In this document: piece after piece, positions 17,227-26,299 of the stretch
Numbering within the stretch: the first letter of the stretch is position 1
How the letters are laid out: every line of letters begins with the position of its first letter
NCBI GenBank assembly: GCA_016219175.1
Contig: JACRCD010000046.1
Location: 1 to 33,655, forward strand
DNA from: Deltaproteobacteria bacterium
GTDB taxonomy: Bacteria; Desulfobacterota; Desulfobulbia; Desulfobulbales; SURF-16
Length of the DNA stretch: 33,655 nucleotides
Direction: 5' to 3'
Position numbers and translations under genes: made by a program
Notes under the pieces: generated by a model
What the model was told of the DNA's origin: nothing
The model's database searches: none
The model's input: only the letters and a program-made list of their open reading frames with translations

Positions 17227-17448
17227 GTTTCTTTAATATTGATATTTTTAGGTTTTTTATAGCGGGACAAAAGTGAACATCTTTTATAAACATCTTACCT
17301 GATTCCTTAGTTTATTGACAAAGATTTATTTTCATTTAGAGTGGCTTTTAGCAATTTTAGAAATTGCGCAATCCCTCTTTGAGGGGCAAATTGAATATTT
17401 GCCAAGTGAATAGGTGATTGAGAAGTGGAATAACGACCCCGGCTAACC
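17227..17448. other. Gene-free region with three consecutive perfect hairpins
   Basis: No convincing gene is seen. At 17351-17402 three short perfect stem-loops follow each other: GCAATTT-tag-AAATTGC (17351-17367), CCCTC-ttt-GAGGG (17373-17385) and GCAAAT-tgaat-ATTTGC (17386-17402). The regular arrangement suggests a structured repeat or RNA rather than chance. A minus-strand open frame through this stretch has no start signal or recognisable family and is not called. Confidence 0.5.
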
Positions 17449-17613
17449 TTGATGGCGTCGTAAAAAATCCGATCTACTGCGTTGTAGCGCATTTTGGTTC
17501 GTTCGGCATACCACATGTATAGCCTCACTCTCAAAAATACACTACGCCTTGTATATCGAATTTTGTTACTTAGCCATCTGGGCTTTGTCGCCGACTTTTT
17601 ACGAGTTCATCAA
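17449..17613. mobile_element. MITE-like inverted-repeat element, copy A (165 bp)
   Basis: The ends are imperfect inverted repeats of 18 bp: TTGATGGCGTCGTAAAAA (17449-17466) and TTTTTACGAGTTCATCAA (17596-17613), matching at 15 of 18 positions. The interior is also self-complementary, so the whole element can fold into one long hairpin. It has no coding capacity. A nearly identical copy follows two bases later, and a truncated relative lies at 33390-33520. Confidence 0.8.
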
Positions 17614-17615
17614 CC

Positions 17616-17779
17616 TTGATGGCGTCGTAAAAAAATCGATCTACTGCGTTGTAGCGCATTTTTGTTCGTTCGGCATACCCATGTATAGCCTCACTCTCAA
17701 AAATACACTACGCCTTGTATATCGAAATTTGTTACTTAGCCATCCGGGCTTTGTCGCCGGCTTTTTACGGATTCATCAA
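17616..17779. mobile_element. MITE-like inverted-repeat element, copy B (164 bp)
   Basis: A tandem copy of 17449-17613 with only scattered differences. The ends are TTGATGGCGTCGTAAAAA and TTTTTACGGATTCATCAA (17762-17779). Internally GTAG (17651-17654) and ATTTTTG (17658-17664) pair with CAAAAAT (17698-17704) and CTAC (17708-17711). It ends 40 bp before the next gene, so it may supply or disturb that gene's upstream control region. Confidence 0.8.
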
Positions 17780-17819
17780 CCTTCAACCACCAGATCATAA
17801 GAAGAAAAATATCATTCTC

Positions 17820-22863: not shown

Positions 22864-23970
<1,107 letters not shown>

Positions 23971-23990
23971 TTAAAATAAATGGGATTTTA

Positions 23991-24023
23991 TCATTCCGCA
24001 AAACGAAAAAAATCACGGAATGA
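23991..24023 (-). terminator. Inverted repeat between the TOPRIM-like gene and leuB
   Basis: TCATTCCG (23991-23998) and CGGAATGA (24016-24023) pair exactly around a 17-nt loop, flanked by T- and A-runs. It lies downstream of the TOPRIM-like gene and upstream of leuB. It could end the first transcript or act as an operator for leuB. The stem is short for its loop. Confidence 0.35.
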
Positions 24024-24111
24024 AAAAAATATAAGGCTAACTATTTGTAATAAATATATTTTTCTACGATTCCGGCACACCTTGTGGTGAAAAATAGACC
24101 ACCTGGTATCA

Positions 24112-24741
24112 CTATGAAATCGGAAACCATGTTTGCAAGGTGGTTTTAAGCTTGATAAAGGCTGGATCAACGCACCGCCCCAGGCTAACCTGCCGGGCAA
24201 GTTGGTCATAGAGGGAGGATGATCGAGATTTTCGAGCCGTTCGCAGGGCAAGCTCAATTGCTTCTTTTGGTCTTTCCGGCTTTGCCTGTCCTTCCTGTAA
24301 AAATTTTTTGTCCTTCAGCCAGCTTCTCAAGTCCGGGTTCCTCCCCTGCCAGCCCAATACGGCATCAACCTGTGGCGAGTCGCTCCAAACCCACATTTCA
24401 AGCTCAGGGTCGATGACCACGGCGGCGGCTCGTCCCCCCCATCCCGATTCTGACAACCGTTTTTCAATCATCGCTTCCAATGTCTCTCTTGATCTATCCT
24501 GTCCGCATCCCTCCCGGTCGAGCAGGATCAGGGCATGGGCAAACTGATTTCGAAAGAGACTGAGAAAATCATGACCACGCAACAAACAGCCCGGGTCTCT
24601 TTCCGGATGCACATGAACAACCGGCATTGGTTCTCGTATTCTCAGGGCCTGCGCGCGACCGAGAATGCCTTTTATCGCGAATTCCATATCCTTGTCAGCA
24701 ACCAGAACAACAAGATCATGGGGATATGGTCCGCTTGTCAT
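24112..24741 (-). CDS. TOPRIM/RloB-like protein, partner of the AAA ATPase
   Basis: This 209-residue soluble protein has segments reminiscent of TOPRIM-type nuclease families that accompany ABC ATPases: LVVLVADKDMEFAIKGIL (10-27) in the place of the usual Glu-bearing strand, HALILLDREG (69-78) as the Asp-rich strand, and DPELEMWVWSDS (111-122), like the P-x-x-E-x-W segment of RloB/DUF4276-type proteins. The canonical first-strand Glu is not obvious (D16, D18 and E20 are candidates). The ATG at 24741 overlaps the ATPase stop in an ATGA, so it is preferred over an in-frame start at 24792. Family assignment is from memory of motifs. Confidence 0.55.
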   Translation of the reverse strand: MTSGPYPHDLVVLVADKDMEFAIKGILGRAQALRIREPMPVVHVHPERDPGCLLRGHDFLSLFRNQFAHALILLDREGCGQDRSRETLEAMIEKRLSESGWGGRAAAVVIDPELEMWVWSDSPQVDAVLGWQGRNPDLRSWLKDKKFLQEGQAKPERPKEAIELALRTARKSRSSSLYDQLARQVSLGRCVDPAFIKLKTTLQTWFPIS

Positions 24742-26003
24742 CCCAGCACCCCGCCGGCAAAAAGAACTCCAAGGCTGGTTGTTCCCTGCCAATCCTTGAG
24801 GGCCGGATGCCGGCTCCCCAGCACAATGTCAGTTGCGCCCTCCTGGGTTTTGGCAAAGCACAGGACATCTTCCACTTTAACCATGCTGAGGATGACGGGG
24901 GAATGGGAGGCCAGCAGAATCTGCGCATCATAAACCGAGGAGAGAGACTGGAACATGGTTTCCACTGCTCGGGGATGGATGCCGTTTTCCGGTTCCTCGA
25001 TCAGGTAAACCCCGGTAAAATCAGGCAGGTAGGCGGGTAATGTCAAGGCCAGCAAGCGAAGGGTGCCGTCAGAAGCCATCCAGGAAGGAATCTCCAGCCC
25101 TCCGCGATAGCAGATGACCAGATAGCGATGCCTGTCGTCGGTTCGTTCGATGATACGAACATTTTCCAGATCAGGCAGGGCGGTTTTCAGGTGCTCAAGC
25201 CAGCTTTGAAAATTATCAGGATGGTTTTTCCGCAGAGCATCCAGGACCCATGGGAGGTTGGAGCCGTCCGGCTTAAAGCCGCGTACCTGTCCGGGCGGGC
25301 TTGCTTTACGGATCAGCAGGCTATTCAAAACAAATTGTTGAACGCCTTCCGTCAGCAATTTTTTCAGCCACGTTGCCACGGGAAACTTCGATTCGTCTTC
25401 CGGGAGATTGCCAAGGGCCGATTTGCGGGGGCCAAGCTTGAAAGCCGGCGCCCAGCCCTTTCCCTTTTCCTGATAAACCTCGGAATAGAAATTGTCATTG
25501 CCGCCGGATACCTTATTAATGACTGTTTGTGTCCCATGGACTCCCTTTGCAGTCATGATACTTGCCGGCGGCACATACGACATGGGGAAAAGTGAAAGCG
25601 GTAGTGGCTGTGTTGCGTCAGAGGAAGATTTCTTCAACAGCACCTTTTCCGTCTGGATGACAACCTCTTCGGTTTTGCCATCAATACCGAAAGAAACCTC
25701 GTAACGAACCGTGTCAAACTCCTTATCCCGCAGCAGACTTCGACGCTCCTTGGGAATAGCGGCCTCAATGGCCAACTCAAACTCGGAGCCAGACCTTTGC
25801 CACAATAGGTCCTGAAAATTCTTGGTTCTCTCACTAACAGCCGCCTCCAAGCCATTGGTAACCAGGCTTCCCAGAAAAGCCACCACATCGAGGAATGTCG
25901 TTTTGCCACTGGCATTGGGGCCGACCAGAACGTGAAACGGCCCCAACTGCTGGCGGGTATATCGCAGGCAGCGAAAGTTTTTTGCCTCAATGAGCGTGAT
26001 CAT
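24738..26003 (-). CDS. ABC-type AAA family ATPase (AAA_15/AAA_21, RecF/OLD-like)
   Basis: This 421-residue protein begins with the typical MITLIEAKNFRCL strand and has Walker A GPNASGKT (28-35), a degenerate ABC signature SDGTLRLLAL (311-320), Walker B LIEEPENG (334-341) and the H-loop ASHSP with H367. The insert between the two nucleotide-binding halves lacks a long coiled coil, so it is not an SMC or RecN protein. There is no fused TOPRIM domain as in OLD; instead the coupled downstream gene seems to supply one. Such pairs are common in anti-phage systems (PARIS AriA/AriB, RloA/RloB). It is divergent from uvrC. Confidence 0.85.
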   Translation of the reverse strand: MITLIEAKNFRCLRYTRQQLGPFHVLVGPNASGKTTFLDVVAFLGSLVTNGLEAAVSERTKNFQDLLWQRSGSEFELAIEAAIPKERRSLLRDKEFDTVRYEVSFGIDGKTEEVVIQTEKVLLKKSSSDATQPLPLSLFPMSYVPPASIMTAKGVHGTQTVINKVSGGNDNFYSEVYQEKGKGWAPAFKLGPRKSALGNLPEDESKFPVATWLKKLLTEGVQQFVLNSLLIRKASPPGQVRGFKPDGSNLPWVLDALRKNHPDNFQSWLEHLKTALPDLENVRIIERTDDRHRYLVICYRGGLEIPSWMASDGTLRLLALTLPAYLPDFTGVYLIEEPENGIHPRAVETMFQSLSSVYDAQILLASHSPVILSMVKVEDVLCFAKTQEGATDIVLGSRHPALKDWQGTTSLGVLFAGGVLG

Positions 26004-26299
26004 GTGCGTATGGCCCCTATGGAGATATACAGTTCTTTTGTCCGGTTAACCAGACATTCATTCATGGACGGTTGCAAACGGCAATATGATCTGCATCCGC
26101 CACAAAATCCTTAGGTTTCGCGGCGTTCAACCAAACCTCCCGTTGTTGCATAACCGGTTAGGCTTACCGTCGCCAACAAAGCGCAACGGAACCCCAGATC
26201 AATAAAGTGCCTTGTCCGGCATGCTGAACTTACAGGAACGGCGGATTGAAGGCGAGAAAAAAATCGTGCTCTTCCCGCACATTATGGTAAAAAAAGTCC
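26004..26299. other. 296-bp divergent intergenic region, no gene seen
   Basis: This lies between the AAA ATPase (-) and uvrC (+). It has no recognisable gene, repeat or RNA. An overlapping open frame from 26212 runs out of frame into uvrC and is a shadow. A GTTAGGC heptamer near 26157 has no attC partner. Confidence 0.5.

What the first reader, a model, noticed from the sequence alone, without database searches (positions are those of the whole stretch)
24112..26003. Coupled AAA ATPase and TOPRIM/RloB-like gene: possible two-gene anti-phage module
An ABC-type AAA ATPase (Walker A, SDGT signature, Walker B LIEEPENG, H-loop) is coupled by an ATGA overlap to a 209-residue protein with Asp-rich strands and a DPELEMWVW segment like RloB/DUF4276. 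The pairing matches the architecture of PARIS or RloA/RloB defence systems, but the small protein's first acidic strand differs from the usual Glu pattern. The pair sits between housekeeping genes (leuB operon and uvrC), as single insertions of defence modules often do.
Basis: partly seen in the sequence, partly recalled or inferred. Interest (0 to 1): 0.62.

Follow-up and report, generated by a model that had tools for sequence, protein, structure and literature searches.

The report
Orphaned MAD3–MAD4 split-OLD defence pair
Two overlapping genes encode an ATPase and a small nuclease-like protein that are known as parts of a larger phage-defence system; here they stand alone, apparently as the survivors of a restriction-modification system whose remains are still visible in sister genomes.

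Summary
NCBIfam names them MAD3 and MAD4 of the methylation-associated defence system, above both cut-offs. They are not part of a MADS: MAD2 and MAD7 pass cut-off in 0 of 54 MAD4-bearing genomes, while a control plasmid has all eight genes in order. Conversely three Bacteroidota plasmids hold MADS with nothing between MAD2 and MAD5. [quoted passage not shown] its family touches DUF4276. The site is empty in a congener, the pair is less diverged at silent sites than 11 neighbours, and in sister genomes it is flanked by fragments of the Mod-Res operon in which its nearest relatives are embedded. Best reading: a PARIS-like guard/effector module, orphaned from its restriction system. Trigger, target and defence are untested.

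The parts
24738..26003 (-). MAD3-like OLD-type ABC ATPase, 421 aa
   Evidence: NCBIfam NF047739 525 bits (cut-off 420), E 1.5e-157; Pfam AAA_21/AAA_15; AlphaFold2 pLDDT 88.9, Foldseek neighbours PtuA, OLD, Rad50, SMC, GajA
24112..24741 (-). MAD4-like small protein with OLD-type Toprim fold, 209 aa
   Evidence: NCBIfam NF047734 233 bits (cut-off 160); AlphaFold2 pLDDT 93.4, pTM 0.88; the four best VIA-align rows are OLD Toprim domains, Z 10.1-9.2
24738..24741 (-). ATGA start/stop overlap coupling the two genes
   Evidence: sequence
25899..25922 (-). MAD3 Walker A, GPNASGKT
   Evidence: G28, N30, S32, G33, K34 invariant in 38 rows
25062..25073 (-). MAD3 ABC signature, SDGT
   Evidence: all four invariant in 38 rows
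24981..25007 (-). MAD3 Walker B, YLIEEPENG
   Evidence: E336-G341 invariant in 38 rows
24903..24905 (-). MAD3 H-loop histidine H367
   Evidence: invariant in 38 rows
24694..24696 (-). MAD4 D16, in place of the usual Toprim Glu
   Evidence: Asp in 52 of 53 rows
24511..24519 (-). MAD4 D75-x-E77, DxD-like motif
   Evidence: D75 in 53 of 53; position 77 acidic in 44 of 53
24391..24408 (-). MAD4 PELEMW, residues 112-117
   Evidence: P112 and W117 in 53 of 53, E113 in 52, E/D115 in 52
24265..24282 (-). MAD4 K154-P155 ... K159
   Evidence: K154, P155, K159 in 53 of 53
23961..26247 (.). Stretch between uvrC and leuB without a counterpart in the empty site of G005 (about 159 bp there instead)
   Evidence: borders from blastn, so approximate

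Best explanation
The pair is a split OLD module of the MAD3-MAD4 family: an OLD-type ABC ATPase (MAD3) and, as a separate protein, a Toprim-fold putative nuclease (MAD4), built like PARIS (AriA-AriB). It is an autonomous, horizontally moving guard/effector that plugs into methylation-based defence systems and can persist without them. At this locus it is what remains of a Mod-MAD3-MAD4-Res restriction operon that entered between uvrC and leuB and lost Mod and Res. Supported by calls: family identity, predicted folds, conserved motifs, occupied and empty sites, relic Mod and Res pieces in sister genomes, purifying selection, absence of MADS partners. Inferred: MAD3 assembles and holds MAD4 inactive; an infection signal (most likely an anti-restriction protein or disturbed restriction machinery, as Ocr for PARIS) lets MAD3 release or activate MAD4; MAD4 then cuts nucleic acid, tRNA or DNA, by two-metal catalysis with D16, D75, E77, E113 and E115, and growth stops before phage is made.
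For: MADS3/MADS4 models above cut-off. MAD4 fold nearest OLD Toprim domains: 6nk8 Z 10.1 (178 aligned, rmsd 4.5), 6njv 9.7, 6p74 8.9 (134 aligned); Foldseek best hit 6njv, probability 0.98, E 0.014. MAD3 ORF found in 55 of 61 MAD4 loci; identities of MAD3 and MAD4 correlate at r 0.86 over 36 pairs. No MADS: MAD2 over cut-off in 0 of 54 genomes, MAD7 in 0 of the same 54, MAD8 matched in 0 of 27, with the Piscinibacter plasmid as positive control. MADS without the pair on three Bacteroidota plasmids. Relics: Mod residues 1-88 upstream of MAD3 in L007 (E 1e-20); Res from residue 391/392 at the end of MAD4 in L006, L007 (E 8e-4) and G002 (E 4e-7); Res C-terminus upstream of MAD3 in G002 (E 1e-87); E-values are for a small set of target sequences. 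The nearest MAD3 relatives at other loci, L008, L009 and L013, lie in the order Mod-MAD3-MAD4-Res. Silent divergence window-G001: MAD4 0.24, MAD3 0.33, 11 flanking genes 0.61-1.74.
Against: No assay of any kind. In the window itself no Mod or Res relic is detectable; the relics are in sister genomes. G002 has an in-frame deletion that removes D49, D75 and E77 of MAD4 while its MAD3 is 95% identical, so the effector is dispensable or costly there. Position 77 is not acidic in 9 of 53 sequences, so catalysis by MAD4 is not certain. The fold match is moderate: Foldseek has no hit at E 0.001, and Piwi-type MID domains reach Z 8.9-8.5 over 113-121 residues. 45 of 61 loci show no partner system within 6 kb by the reference set used. 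Promoter-like sites near the pair are not above chance. MAD5 and MAD6 were not searched in the genome, and many genomes tested are incomplete bins.
Confidence: 0.62

Rival explanations
1. The pair is a subunit set of a MADS whose other genes lie elsewhere in the genome and act in trans.
For: NCBIfam labels both proteins as MADS equivalogs.
Against: In the window's genome MAD1 reaches 47.8 bits (cut-off 80), MAD2 283 (cut-off 720), MAD7 and MAD8 give no match; MAD5 and MAD6 were not searched. MAD2 and MAD7 pass cut-off in none of 54 MAD4-bearing genomes.
Confidence: 0.04
2. A DNA-directed OLD/Gabija-like nuclease: MAD3 senses DNA ends, replication state or nucleotide levels, and MAD4 cuts phage DNA without any link to restriction systems.
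For: The nearest solved folds of MAD4 are OLD Toprim domains; MAD3 resembles PtuA, OLD, GajA and Rad50; 21 of 32 loci with 3 kb on both sides show no restriction-type or AddAB-like neighbour; L033 and L047 sit beside AddAB-like genes.
Against: Embedding in several kinds of restriction-type operon and the relic Mod-Res at this very site point to a tie with restriction.
Confidence: 0.22
3. A decaying leftover without present function.
For: Relic Mod and Res fragments around the pair and a deleted MAD4 in G002; absence from G005.
Against: Both reading frames are intact in the window, G001 and G003; dN/dS 0.06-0.18 for MAD3 and 0.05-0.35 for MAD4, with the ATPase motifs and most acidic positions kept.
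Confidence: 0.1
4. A housekeeping role, like the archaeal OLD protein Cran1 in the cell cycle.
For: Cran1 shows that OLD proteins can have non-defence roles (PMC12796447; start of abstract and passages seen).
Against: Patchy: 5 of 97 relatives and 10 of 395 genomes of the phylum; absent from G005; relatives scattered over many phyla.
Confidence: 0.02

Closest known systems
MAD3 and MAD4 of MADS (methylation-associated defence system; Maestri et al. 2024, not held; gene names from NCBIfam)
   Same: Both proteins pass the curated cut-offs; same order and 4-base coupling as in the control MADS plasmid NZ_CP136338.1
   Different: MAD1, MAD2, MAD7 and MAD8 not found over cut-off in the genome; 34% (MAD3) and 36% (MAD4) identity to that plasmid's copies
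PARIS (AriA-AriB), class 4 OLD
   Same: OLD-ABC ATPase and Toprim protein on separate adjacent genes (definition from passages of PMC10568477 and PMC12796447); PADLOC AriA model E 1.3e-28, one of 129 families that match MAD3 at E up to 1
   Different: The small protein matches only mad4 and HEC-01B in PADLOC, no AriB, at E up to 1
HEC-01 of PADLOC-DB (candidate system)
   Same: HEC-01A hits MAD3 at 2.8e-43, HEC-01B hits MAD4 at 4.3e-5
   Different: Weak match of the small protein; a search for HEC-01 together with PADLOC found no paper
OLD nucleases / Gabija GajA
   Same: ABC ATPase plus Toprim; MAD4 fold nearest to OLD Toprim domains
   Different: Two polypeptides, and no helicase gene beside the pair in the window
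DUF4276 and RloB
   Same: 16 of 53 MAD4 family members match DUF4276, best E 2.5e-5; best viral structural hit is named RloB-like, E 2.4e-3
   Different: The window's MAD4 itself has no Pfam match at E up to 1; RloB matches 1 of 53 at E 0.05

Membership tests
NCBIfam MAD3 / MAD4 protein families | score above curated cut-off over full length | tested here: met
   525.2 vs 420 over 1-427/427; 233 vs 160 over 2-206/206
MADS (eight-gene system) | MAD2 methyltransferase present | tested here: not met
   own best 283 bits vs 720; 0 of 54 MAD4-bearing genomes over cut-off; control plasmid 1015.5 bits
MADS (eight-gene system) | MAD7 present | tested here: not met
   no match in own genome; over cut-off only in the control plasmid, 1 of 55
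MADS (eight-gene system) | MAD8 present | tested here: not met
   no match in own genome at E 1e-10; matches only in three MADS plasmids of 30 records
MADS (eight-gene system) | MAD1 present | tested here: not met
   best 47.8 bits vs cut-off 80 in own genome
MADS (eight-gene system) | MAD5 specificity subunit and MAD6 kinase present | not tested
PARIS / class 4 OLD | split OLD-ABC ATPase and Toprim protein encoded side by side | tested here: met
   predicted structures only
PARIS / class 4 OLD | effector of the AriB sequence family | tested here: inconclusive
   no AriB match at E up to 1 in PADLOC; coverage of its AriB models not checked
PARIS / class 4 OLD | activation by Ocr-like anti-restriction protein and tRNA cleavage | not testable with these tools
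   bench only
RloAB | RloB Pfam domain in the small protein | tested here: not met
   no match in the window protein; 1 of 53 members at E 0.05
DUF4276 | Pfam PF14103 match | tested here: inconclusive
   none in the window protein at E up to 1; 16 of 53 members, best 2.5e-5
Toprim fold | OLD-type Toprim fold | tested here: met
   AF2 pLDDT 93.4; VIA-align Z 10.1 to 6nk8 over 178 residues, four best rows OLD (three are forms of one protein); but Foldseek E only 0.014, and Piwi-type MID domains reach Z 8.9 over 113 residues
Toprim fold | conserved Glu, then DxD | tested here: inconclusive
   Glu replaced by Asp (D16, 52 of 53); D75 53 of 53; position 77 acidic in 44 of 53
Gabija / class 2 OLD | fused ATPase-Toprim beside a UvrD-type helicase | tested here: not met
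   two separate genes, and none other between uvrC and leuB by the ORF list

The most novel reading that the evidence does not exclude
MAD3-MAD4 is a portable guard cassette that has entered at least five unrelated methylation-based systems, often between the modification gene and its partner: MAD2|pair|MAD5 in MADS, Mod|pair|Res in a type III-like system, DUF1156|pair|DUF499, next to BREX-6 PglX, and beside type I S or R genes. It protects the host system against anti-restriction and outlives it when that system decays, as at this locus.
Probability: 0.4. Interest if true: 0.68.

Novelty: new variant of a known kind. Interest (0 to 1): 0.47.

Why it matters
It indicates that two of the eight MADS genes form an autonomous module: the pair exists without MADS and MADS exists without the pair. 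That makes a clean genetic prediction for MADS (a core of six plus an optional PARIS-like guard), warns that the family labels will suggest MADS where there is none, and offers a natural experiment in which a guard was kept after the restriction system it rode with was lost.

Tried and rejected
Full MADS in this genome: rejected. PADLOC mad2 as a marker: useless, it matches in all 22 genomes and all 14 controls. NF047735 turned out to be another family, MPL36. A search for MAD2 in 369 genomes of the class of G116 found none, but at a strict E of 1e-150 and with no positive anywhere, so it says little. RloAB and PARIS as the sequence family: considered, not supported. Viral contigs and phage records gave no MAD4 relative; plasmids one. 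The A3 profile against PDB sequences gave only four hits at E 0.18 or more, of unrelated names. Promoter and terminator scans were no better than shuffles; repeats in the insert are short two-copy matches of the kind that arise by chance; no Rfam family or tRNA in the window. Structural families not listed by VIA-align are not excluded.

Limits of the counts. The genome-contig scan rested on two peptide patterns and is not exhaustive. The MAD4 alignment A3 holds the window and 52 of 61 loci (L007, L040, L059 and L061-L066 left out as near-duplicate, deleted or partial); A4 holds the window, 36 of 61 loci and the plasmid. MAD3 was not seen in L036, L046, L047, L057, L062, L063 (contig edge, or no ORF picked). 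The neighbour count used a small home-made reference set drawn partly from the same loci; several of these references (L009 Mod and Res, L017 DUF1156 and DUF499, L033 AddB and SNF2, L053 HsdM) are below the NCBIfam cut-offs and named by best match only, BREX-6 PglX of L034 is above; AddA of L033 is my label. L031 and L056 were counted on weak matches, and Pfam finds nothing in the L056 neighbour at E 1e-6; the L042 neighbour is an N6 methylase by Pfam. L048, L049 and L066 were not counted although they have defence-type or HsdS/HsdR-like neighbours. No base rate for random loci was measured. In the MAD3 tree many forks are unsupported and the branch joining the window and L008 has SH-aLRT 34, so the order of restriction-linked and orphan states inside this clade is unresolved. 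Silent distances above about 1 are near saturation.

Full report
What is there. The two genes exist as described, on the minus strand: 24738-26003 (421 aa) and 24112-24741 (209 aa) with a 4-base ATGA overlap. The larger is an OLD-type ABC ATPase whose ATPase motifs are invariant in 38 aligned sequences. NCBIfam assigns the pair to MADS3 (525 bits, cut-off 420) and MADS4 (233 bits, cut-off 160). PADLOC gives mad3/mad4 and HEC-01A/B. Pfam gives nothing for the small protein alone, but 16 of 53 aligned family members weakly match DUF4276 and one RloB.

Fold. AlphaFold2 with a 53-row alignment gives MAD4 a pLDDT of 93.4 and pTM 0.88. Foldseek against the PDB is weak (best 6njv, E 0.014, probability 0.98; no hit at E 0.001). 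In the VIA-align second look the four best rows are Toprim domains of OLD proteins, Z 10.1 to 9.2 over 176-180 residues (three of them are crystal forms of one protein), PH0156 follows at 9.0 and full-length T. scotoductus OLD at 8.9 over 134 residues. Against this, Piwi-type MID domains reach 8.9 and 8.5 over only 113-121 residues, and lumazine synthases 7 to 7.7. In BFVD the first row is an RloB-like phage protein. MAD3 (pLDDT 88.9) resembles PtuA, OLD, Rad50 and SMC heads. In MAD4 the Toprim Glu is an Asp (D16, 52 of 53), D75 is invariant, position 77 is acidic in 44 of 53, E113 is kept in 52, position 115 is acidic in 52, and K154 and K159 are invariant. A set of metal ligands with an ExE pair is proposed for the OLD protein Cran1 (passage of PMC12796447); MAD4's D16, D75-x-E77 and E113-x-E115 fit that pattern by motif only, since I had no residue-level overlay.

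Not MADS. The Piscinibacter plasmid NZ_CP136338.1 carries MAD1 to MAD8 in order, all above cut-off, and serves as positive control. In MAD4-bearing genomes MAD2 is over cut-off in 0 of 54 and MAD7 in 0 of the same 54 (the genome of L011 has sub-threshold matches to both); MAD8 is matched in 0 of 27. Many of these are incomplete bins. In the window's genome (98.4% complete) MAD1 is also below cut-off. MAD5 and MAD6 were not searched. Conversely, MADS of a Hymenobacter and a Bacteroides plasmid has MAD2, MAD5, MAD6 and MAD7 over cut-off (MAD8 165.5 and 178.7 against 175), with MAD2 and MAD5 overlapping and neither MAD3 nor MAD4 between them; a Phocaeicola plasmid shows the same arrangement by tblastn. 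No MAD4 relative is detectable elsewhere on those plasmids with either query; the chromosomes of their hosts were not searched. So the pair and the MADS core are separable both ways, the second way resting on three plasmids.

Where else it occurs. One pattern-based scan of genome contigs gave 61 loci, with a MAD3 ORF in 55. MAD4 was found in 5 of 97 relatives and in 10 of 395 genomes of the phylum, 9 over cut-off, own genome included; in no viral contig or phage record at the sensitivity used; in one plasmid. By a limited reference set 16 of 61 loci have a restriction-type or AddAB-like gene within 6 kb, and 11 of the 32 loci that have at least 3 kb on both sides. Layouts include Mod-MAD3-MAD4-Res (L008, L009, L013), DUF1156-pair-DUF499 (L028, L035), BREX-6 PglX beside the pair (L034), type I S or R genes (L046, L053, L066) and a SNF2 helicase with an AddB-like gene (L033). 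The others show no such partner by this set.

This locus. In G005 (same genus) and G011 (same family) uvrC and leuB adjoin without the pair; window 23961-26247 corresponds to about 159 bp in G005. Of six genus genomes, three have the pair intact, G002 has it with a deleted MAD4, G005 is empty, and G004 lacks MAD4 but its site cannot be read because leuB was not found at the cut-off used. Silent divergence between the window and G001 is 0.24 for MAD4 and 0.33 for MAD3 but 0.61 to 1.74 for 11 flanking genes; the pair is also the lowest two of 13 genes in the two other comparisons. Identity to L008 is 95% and 85% against 80% for LeuB; to Sulfurimicrobium (L009, a metagenome bin, so binning error is possible) 87% and 71% against 49%; to Moorella sulfitireducens (L017, an isolate) 72% and 60% against 56%, where the contrast is small. 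In the MAD3 tree the labels of 12 phyla need 19 changes against a least possible 11. Most simply, the pair moves between genomes.

The fossil. The closest relatives of the window's MAD3 at other sites, L008, L009 and L013, lie between Mod (cut by the contig edge in L008 and L013) and a BPTD_3080-like Res. At the uvrC-leuB site G003 (L007) still has a stretch matching the first 88 residues of Mod just upstream of MAD3 (57% identity, E 1e-20), and G001 (L006) a 31-bp trace of it. G001, G003 and G002 have a piece of Res from residue 391 or 392 at the very end of MAD4 (18 residues, E 8e-4, with an in-frame stop; and 28 residues, E 4e-7). G002 also has the last 185 residues of Res upstream of MAD3, at the start of its contig. 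E-values are for the small target set of that call. The window shows no such piece, and no such Res elsewhere in its genome at E 1e-20. The simplest history is a Mod-MAD3-MAD4-Res operon that decayed around a pair that was kept; the upstream Res piece in G002 means that the history there was more complex. MAD3 dN/dS is 0.06-0.18 and MAD4 0.05-0.35. Against a uniform need for the effector, G002 has lost about 70 residues of MAD4 in frame, including D49, D75 and E77.

Mechanism. PARIS is the nearest well-studied analogue: its ATPase AriA detects the anti-restriction protein Ocr and activates the Toprim tRNase AriB, and OLD-ABC/Toprim pairs are described as backup effectors in BREX loci (passages of PMC12839542 and PMC12409363). 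A guard that rides with restriction systems fits the contexts seen here. Trigger, substrate and the defence itself are inference; a DNA-directed OLD-like action is the main rival.

Known or new. [quoted passage not shown] I found no paper on MAD3-MAD4 outside MADS in searches, but the MADS paper itself is not held, nor are preprints and most subscription papers, so this is a weak negative. I class it as a new variant of a known kind.

Noticed in passing
window 17445-17783: Two tandem copies (166 bp, 94% matches) of an intergenic repeat that begins ...CGTCGTAAAAAA and ends ...CTTTTTACG, so with inverted-repeat-like ends by eye, near the ORF at 17715; it may be a REP/MITE-type repeat. A 19-base piece of it has no exact match in the 87 loci at hand.
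   Followed up: partly
L005 1357-1830 (G002; L040 appears to be the same contig): MAD4 with an in-frame internal deletion that removes the DxD-like motif while MAD3 stays intact: a natural effector-less variant.
   Followed up: partly
L085, L086, L087: MADS on Bacteroidota plasmids without MAD3-MAD4; in L086 a PP2C phosphatase gene follows MAD8, a possible partner of the MAD6 kinase.
   Followed up: partly
L033 5846-17297: The pair lies between a SNF2-type helicase and AddB/AddA-like genes, a possible further composite defence operon; L047 has an AddA-like gene 96 bp after MAD4.
   Followed up: no
L048 897-10627: A second OLD-like ABC ATPase and a 2088-aa helicase-like protein stand directly before the MAD3-MAD4 pair.
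   Followed up: no
window 22864-23946 (leuB): leuB is the least diverged flanking gene at silent sites between the window and G001 (0.61), next to the pair: a hint that recombination tracts carrying the pair reach into leuB.
   Followed up: no
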